Below are positions 1 through 371 of a stretch of 55,666 bases of DNA, piece by piece. The stretch is from Fibrobacter sp. (GTDB lineage Bacteria > Fibrobacterota > Fibrobacteria > Fibrobacterales > Fibrobacteraceae): positions 1 through 55,666 of the forward strand of contig JAGDBD010000051.1 of the NCBI GenBank assembly GCA_017959225.1, read 5' to 3'. The notes beneath the pieces are model-generated. The model was given only the letters and a program-made list of their open reading frames with translations. It was not told the DNA's origin and ran no database searches. Every line of letters starts with the position of its first letter. Position 1 is the stretch's first letter. The translations under genes were made by a program, and so were the position numbers.

Positions 1-71
1 ATTTCATCCGCATTCACCACTGCCCAACCAATCGAATTCGTCCCCAACTCGAGCCCCAAAATCTTCTTCAT
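1..71 (-). CDS. cas9: Cas9 endonuclease, N-terminal fragment (cut by window edge)
   Basis: The first 23 codons read leftward from an ATG at 71. They encode MKKILGLELG followed by TNSIGWAVV, which is the RuvC-I segment that opens Cas9 proteins. Cas9 is the RNA-guided DNA nuclease of type II CRISPR systems. The identification is supported by the tracrRNA that starts about 215 bases away on the opposite strand. A good Shine-Dalgarno (AGGAG) lies about 7 nt before the ATG, and a -10-like TATATT on the minus strand at 105-110 could be its promoter. The position equivalent to the catalytic Asp (D10 of the S. pyogenes enzyme) is Glu (GAG, residue 8). HNH, PAM-interacting domain, cas1/cas2 and subtype cannot be seen; type II-C is a guess from the tracrRNA style. 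Confidence 0.88.
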   Translation of the reverse strand, partial: MKKILGLELGTNSIGWAVVNADE

Positions 72-104
72 TTAAGCACTCCTATATAAATTTTCCTATT
101 CAAA

Positions 105-110: not shown

Positions 111-217
111 TCATTCAAAGGCAGAAAATGCGAAAATTTCACTATTTTCGGCAAATTCTATTGATATTTTAGCATTTCCAATAGGGCAAATTCTTATAAA
201 AATAAATTCGCAAGATG

Positions 218-240
218 ACAAATTTTGTCACAAAATTTGT
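218..240. repeat. Perfect inverted repeat upstream of the tracrRNA promoter
   Basis: ACAAATTTTG (218-227) and CAAAATTTGT (231-240) are perfect 10-bp arms around a 3-nt centre. The right arm ends 10 nt before the -35 box of the tracrRNA promoter, in the cas9-tracrRNA intergenic region. It could be a protein-binding operator or the terminator of a short transcript. Nothing in the sequence decides between these. Confidence 0.55.
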
Positions 241-250
241 AATTTTAGTA

Positions 251-279
251 TTGACTCTCGTCTCAATTCAAACTATATT
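251..279 (+). promoter_or_regulatory. sigma70-type promoter of the tracrRNA
   Basis: TTGACT (251-256) and TATATT (274-279) are separated by exactly 17 nt, a near-consensus vegetative promoter. Transcription should start at about 285-287, which is the 5' end of the anti-repeat. This is the best-matching promoter seen in the window and suggests strong constitutive expression. Confidence 0.85.
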
Positions 280-285
280 AGGAGT

Positions 286-371
286 ACAAATCTGAAAGCA
301 ATTCACAATAAGGATTATTCCGTTGTGAAAACATTTAGAGCGGCGCGCAAGCGTCGCTCTCTTTTATTTTT
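286..371 (+). ncRNA. tracrRNA of a type II CRISPR-Cas system
   Basis: This is a trans-activating RNA of about 85 nt. Its 5' part, from about 286 to 309, contains GAAAGCAATTCACAAT. That is complementary to repeats beginning (A/G)TTGTGAATTGCTTTC, the usual start of Bacteroidota-type type II repeats. AAGGATTATTCCG follows (310-322), like the nexus AAGGCTAGTCCG of the S. pyogenes tracrRNA; its G312-A314 pairs with T319-C321. The 3' end is a 10-bp hairpin (337-346 with 351-360, GCAA loop, one G-U pair) followed by a T-rich run (361-371), a typical terminator. Promoter, anti-repeat, nexus and terminator are all present. It is transcribed away from cas9. The predicted CRISPR array is not in the window. 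Confidence 0.9.
337..371 (+). terminator. Rho-independent terminator of the tracrRNA
   Basis: AGAGCGGCGC and GCGTCGCTCT form a 10-bp stem with a GCAA tetraloop, followed by CTTTTATTTTT. In tracrRNAs such a terminal hairpin usually also contacts Cas9. Confidence 0.88.

What the first reader, a model, noticed from the sequence alone, without database searches (positions are those of the whole stretch)
1..71. Cas9 with Glu in place of the catalytic RuvC-I Asp
The RuvC-I motif reads GLELGTNSIGW, where nearly all known Cas9 proteins have GLD(I/L)GTNS. The Asp coordinates a catalytic metal ion in the RNase H fold. Glu could give a slow or nicking enzyme, or the gene could be decaying, or it could be a natural binding-only Cas9 used for regulation. 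Only the first 23 codons are visible.
Basis: partly seen in the sequence, partly recalled or inferred. Interest (0 to 1): 0.68.

Follow-up and report, generated by a model that had tools for sequence, protein, structure and literature searches.

The report
Truncated Cas9 start with odd glutamate
The contig breaks off 23 codons into an ordinary type II-C Cas9 gene that has one base change turning a catalytic aspartate into glutamate; all relatives checked have the aspartate, so this is probably a consensus error at the contig tip or a private mutation, and nothing shows a new kind of Cas9.

Summary
Confirmed: window 71-3 (minus strand) reads MKKILGLELGTNSIGWAVVNADE, the start of a cas9, with GAG (Glu) at codon 8. 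The contig itself ends there, and no other piece of cas9, cas1, cas2 or a matching CRISPR repeat was found in the 130-contig draft. The rest of the gene cannot be read.

A congener (G003) has the intact orthologous locus: Cas9 of 1537 aa with GLD (codon GAT), then Cas1 and Cas2. The 23 codons match except this residue, which is one base (window position 48, 48 bases from the contig end). All 17 other motif matches in 168 genomes of the phylum have Asp. A degenerate Glu-version pattern found no Cas9 in 84,980 species genomes or in viral contigs. The closest solved relative is CbCas9, whose engineered dead form has this Asp changed to Ala.

The window also holds what looks like the system's tracrRNA (about 286-367, +), so the visible end of the locus is not decaying.

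Most likely this is an ordinary type II-C CRISPR-Cas9 cut by the assembly, with Glu either a consensus error or a private mutation. If the Glu is real, RuvC cleavage should be reduced while HNH is unaffected. A dedicated binding-only Cas9 has no positive support.

The parts
1..71 (-). 5' end of cas9 (23 full codons and 2 bases of codon 24), cut by the contig end; RuvC-I motif GLELGTNSIGW
   Evidence: orthologue L007:1760-6370 in G003
48..50 (-). codon 8, GAG (Glu); GAT in the congener G003, GAT or GAC in the other relatives; the difference from G003 is window base 48
79..83 (-). Shine-Dalgarno-like AGGAG just upstream of the cas9 start codon
   Evidence: sequence
216..230 (.). dyad TGACA-N5-TGTCA between cas9 and tracrRNA, present in all nine loci that have this tracrRNA core; its minus-strand TTGTCA is followed after 17 nt by TATAAG, a possible cas9 promoter
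   Evidence: for the dyad; the cas9 promoter reading is by eye
251..279 (+). promoter-like site TTGACT-17-TATATT upstream of the tracrRNA
286..367 (+). putative tracrRNA: anti-repeat AAATCTGAAAGCAATTCACAA then conserved core AAGGATTATTCCGTTGTGAAAACATTT; ends are approximate
337..360 (+). intrinsic terminator hairpin of the tracrRNA (10 pairs, then CTTTTATTTT)

Best explanation
This is the first 23 codons of an ordinary type II-C Cas9 gene of the CbCas9 branch, in a locus arranged as tracrRNA (divergent), cas9, cas1, cas2, CRISPR array, and cut off by the end of a draft contig. The Glu at codon 8 is a single third-position base change on an Asp background. It is either a consensus error close to the contig tip or a private recent mutation of this strain. 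Shown: the Glu codon in the assembly, Asp in every relative checked, a tracrRNA-like element and an intact gene start beside it. Inferred: that the rest of the gene resembles the congener's. If the Glu is real, the longer side chain would disturb the RuvC metal site, so non-target-strand cutting would be slow or lost, while the HNH domain could still cut the target strand.
For: The contig starts at window base 1 and the assembly holds no further cas9 sequence. The congeneric orthologue is intact with GLD. All 17 other phylum matches have GAY. The Glu-version pattern hits in 84,980 species genomes are not Cas9. In viral contigs the Asp version finds 13 loci, most of them clear Cas9 starts, and the Glu version finds one non-Cas9. 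Only four bases differ from G003 over the 71 nt, and the Glu change is the only amino-acid difference in the 23 full codons. The tracrRNA core is identical in the six aligned loci.
Against: No reads are available, so an error cannot be told from a real mutation. Position 48 lies beside another difference (position 45), which fits real divergence as well as error. Pattern scans miss Cas9 proteins with other motif spellings, and the genome-contig scan had no Asp-version control in the same collection.
Confidence: 0.8

Rival explanations
1. The Glu is real and fixed, giving a natural RuvC-impaired Cas9 (slow double-strand cutter or HNH-only nickase) that still gives some immunity.
For: The gene start, 22 of 23 residues and the tracrRNA are intact, so the locus does not look abandoned at its visible end.
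Against: No second case of Glu at this site in the phylum survey, the 84,980 species genomes or the viral contigs under the pattern used; only one base near a contig tip supports it.
Confidence: 0.1
2. The cas9 is decaying and Glu is one of several disabling changes.
For: Neither the rest of cas9 nor cas1, cas2 or a matching repeat was found in the assembly.
Against: The missing parts are explained by the contig end and an incomplete draft (91.5% complete, 130 contigs). The visible codons show no frameshift or stop, and the tracrRNA with its promoter-like site and terminator is conserved.
Confidence: 0.06
3. A natural binding-only Cas9 used for gene regulation.
For: None beyond the substitution itself; nuclease-dead regulators are known in the related TnpB group (own knowledge).
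Against: That would also need a lost HNH function, which cannot be seen here. The congener has a normal-looking Cas9 with adaptation genes. Asp to Glu is the mildest possible change at this site.
Confidence: 0.03

Closest known systems
Cas9 of the congener G003 (L007:1760-6370), type II-C locus
   Same: 22 of 23 residues, same neighbouring transporter gene, same divergent tracrRNA and core
   Different: Asp (GAT) at codon 8 instead of Glu (GAG); complete gene with cas1 and cas2
CbCas9 (PDB 8iyq and related entries), a type II-C Cas9 that works with PcrIIC1 (PMC13153721)
   Same: Closest solved relative of the G003 orthologue; aligned over most of its length, including the LGTNSIGW motif
   Different: The deposited dead form carries an engineered Ala at this Asp and at the HNH His. 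No gene was seen between cas2 and the array in G030, so no PcrIIC1 there; other positions were not searched.
SpCas9 D10A nickase
   Same: Same catalytic position, RuvC-I Asp (own knowledge). D10G was significantly depleted in a deep mutational scan selecting for cutting (PMC5715146)
   Different: Engineered Ala, not natural Glu. I found no measured D10E value in the papers searched.

Membership tests
Type II-C CRISPR-Cas9 (CbCas9 branch) | Cas9 with RuvC-I, HNH and RuvC-III | tested here: inconclusive
   Only the RuvC-I segment lies in the window. The G003 orthologue matches TIGR01865 Cas9, HNH_4 and RuvC_III.
Type II-C CRISPR-Cas9 (CbCas9 branch) | Catalytic Asp in RuvC-I (needed for an active enzyme, not for family descent) | tested here: not met
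   GAG (Glu) at codon 8 in this assembly; Asp in all relatives checked. Whether the base is correct could not be tested.
Type II-C CRISPR-Cas9 (CbCas9 branch) | tracrRNA with anti-repeat matching the CRISPR repeat | tested here: met
   Window 286-367 contains AAATCTGAAAGCAATTCACAA, the same stretch as in the 48-nt repeat of G030 and G095, plus a conserved core and terminator. The repeat of this genome itself is not in the assembly.
Type II-C CRISPR-Cas9 (CbCas9 branch) | cas1 and cas2 downstream, no csn2 or cas4 | tested here: inconclusive
   Seen in G003 and G030: type II Cas1 and Cas2 directly after cas9, and in G030 the array follows. Not readable in this genome.
Nuclease-dead (binding-only) Cas9 | Loss of both RuvC and HNH catalytic residues | not testable with these tools
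   The HNH part is not in the assembly.

The most novel reading that the evidence does not exclude
A natural type II-C Cas9 in which the RuvC-I Asp has been replaced by Glu and kept, giving a slow or nicking enzyme in a working CRISPR system.
Probability: 0.1. Interest if true: 0.55.

Novelty: new member of a known kind. Interest (0 to 1): 0.17.

Why it matters
If the Glu were real and kept by selection, it would be a natural test of whether a Cas9 with an impaired RuvC site still gives immunity. As it stands, the finding mainly shows that catalytic-residue oddities at a contig tip need checking against reads or a second assembly before being treated as biology.

Tried and rejected
The rest of cas9 was sought in the own genome with the RuvC_III family (uninformative, since its controls were silent too), the G003 Cas9 protein, the cas1-cas2 DNA and the repeat: nothing. 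A Glu-version motif scan found 7 genome and 1 viral stretches, none a Cas9. Paper searches for D10E in Cas9 or RNase H and for Fibrobacter Cas9 gave nothing relevant; Fibrobacter was only a guess at the host, which was not established. The idea that the gene really ends after 23 codons was rejected, since the break is the contig end. Rfam has no matching family at its gathering score for the tracrRNA region.

Full report
What is there. The minus strand of window 71-3 encodes MKKILGLELGTNSIGWAVVNADE. Window base 1 is base 1 of contig C41 of a 130-contig draft, 2.43 Mb and 91.5% complete, so the gene is cut by the assembly. The start is well formed: ATG preceded by AGGAG. Codon 8 is GAG.

Is it cas9, and is the Glu unusual? 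A species of the same genus (G003) has the orthologous region: the same transporter gene, then a cas9 of 1537 aa starting MKKILGLDLGTNSIGWAVVNADE, then cas1 and cas2. Over the 23 full codons three bases differ; the only amino-acid change is Glu for Asp (GAG versus GAT), the other two differences being silent. The other Cas9 starts of the family whose RuvC-I motif was read also have Asp. In 168 genomes of the phylum, a motif pattern that accepts Asp or Glu matched 18 times: 17 with GAT or GAC and one, this window, with GAG. A Glu-only pattern over 84,980 species genomes gave seven stretches and over viral contigs one, none with Cas9 context; the Asp-only pattern in viral contigs gave 13, most of them clear Cas9 starts. 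The limit of this test is that the pattern demands a particular motif spelling, and the Asp control was not run in the 84,980-genome collection.

What the residue is. The closest solved relative of the G003 protein is CbCas9; the deposited dead form reads LGLALGTNSIGW where G003 has LGLDLGTNSIGW, and IEAIIPQS where G003 has IEHIIPQS. The SpCas9 mutational scan reports RuvC and HNH as the least tolerant regions, and D10G depleted (PMC5715146); no D10E value was found there. The HNH motif is intact in all six relatives read in full.

The surroundings. On the plus strand, window 251-279 is a promoter-like site, about 286-336 carries AAATCTGAAAGCAATTCACAATAAGGATTATTCCGTTGTGAAAACATTT, and 337-360 is a terminator hairpin followed by T-rich sequence. 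Its first part is the same as the end of the 48-nt CRISPR repeat in G030 and G095, and the core is identical across six aligned loci. It folds far better than shuffled sequence (z = -5.1). This is what a tracrRNA transcribed away from cas9 would look like, with the array read on the strand opposite to cas9, as is usual in type II-C (own knowledge). No transcription was measured. The visible end of the locus therefore looks functional, not decaying.

Missing pieces. No other cas9 fragment, no cas1-cas2 and no repeat like that of the relatives was found in the own genome. With an incomplete draft this does not show loss.

Judgement. One base, 48 positions from a contig tip, separates this from an ordinary Cas9. 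A consensus error and a private mutation both fit, and reads are needed to choose. Given no second case in the surveys, a conserved Glu-type Cas9 clade is not supported. If the Glu is real, the expected effect is reduced or absent non-target-strand cutting with HNH unaffected (inference from the RNase H fold mechanism). A binding-only Cas9 would also require loss of HNH, for which nothing is visible.

Noticed in passing
window 216-230: A dyad TGWCA-N5-TGWCA lies between cas9 and the tracrRNA in all nine loci that have this tracrRNA core (G000, G003, G030, G095, G044, G077, G098, G080, G067) and is absent in the three Cas9 loci examined without that core. It occurs once in the whole 55.7-kb window, against 0.3 expected in shuffles. 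On the minus strand its TTGTCA lies 17 nt before TATAAG, so it may be an operator overlapping the cas9 promoter.
   Followed up: partly
L005:1450-1559 (G001:C88 around 18060): A same-genus genome, 99% complete and with no cas9 found by the G003 protein, carries a tracrRNA-like element with a nearly full-length anti-repeat (GTTGTAAACGCTAAAGTAAAACTAGAAAATCTGAAAGCAATTCACAA) and the same core, next to unrelated genes: an orphan tracrRNA or a relic of a lost locus.
   Followed up: partly
G030 L054:1987-6522 and G003 L007:1760-6370: The Cas9 of G030, a genome of another genus in the family, is 87% identical to that of G003 but only 73-74% identical to the Cas9 of three genomes of its own genus (G095, G044, G077) (genus labels), which suggests horizontal transfer of the CRISPR locus.
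   Followed up: partly
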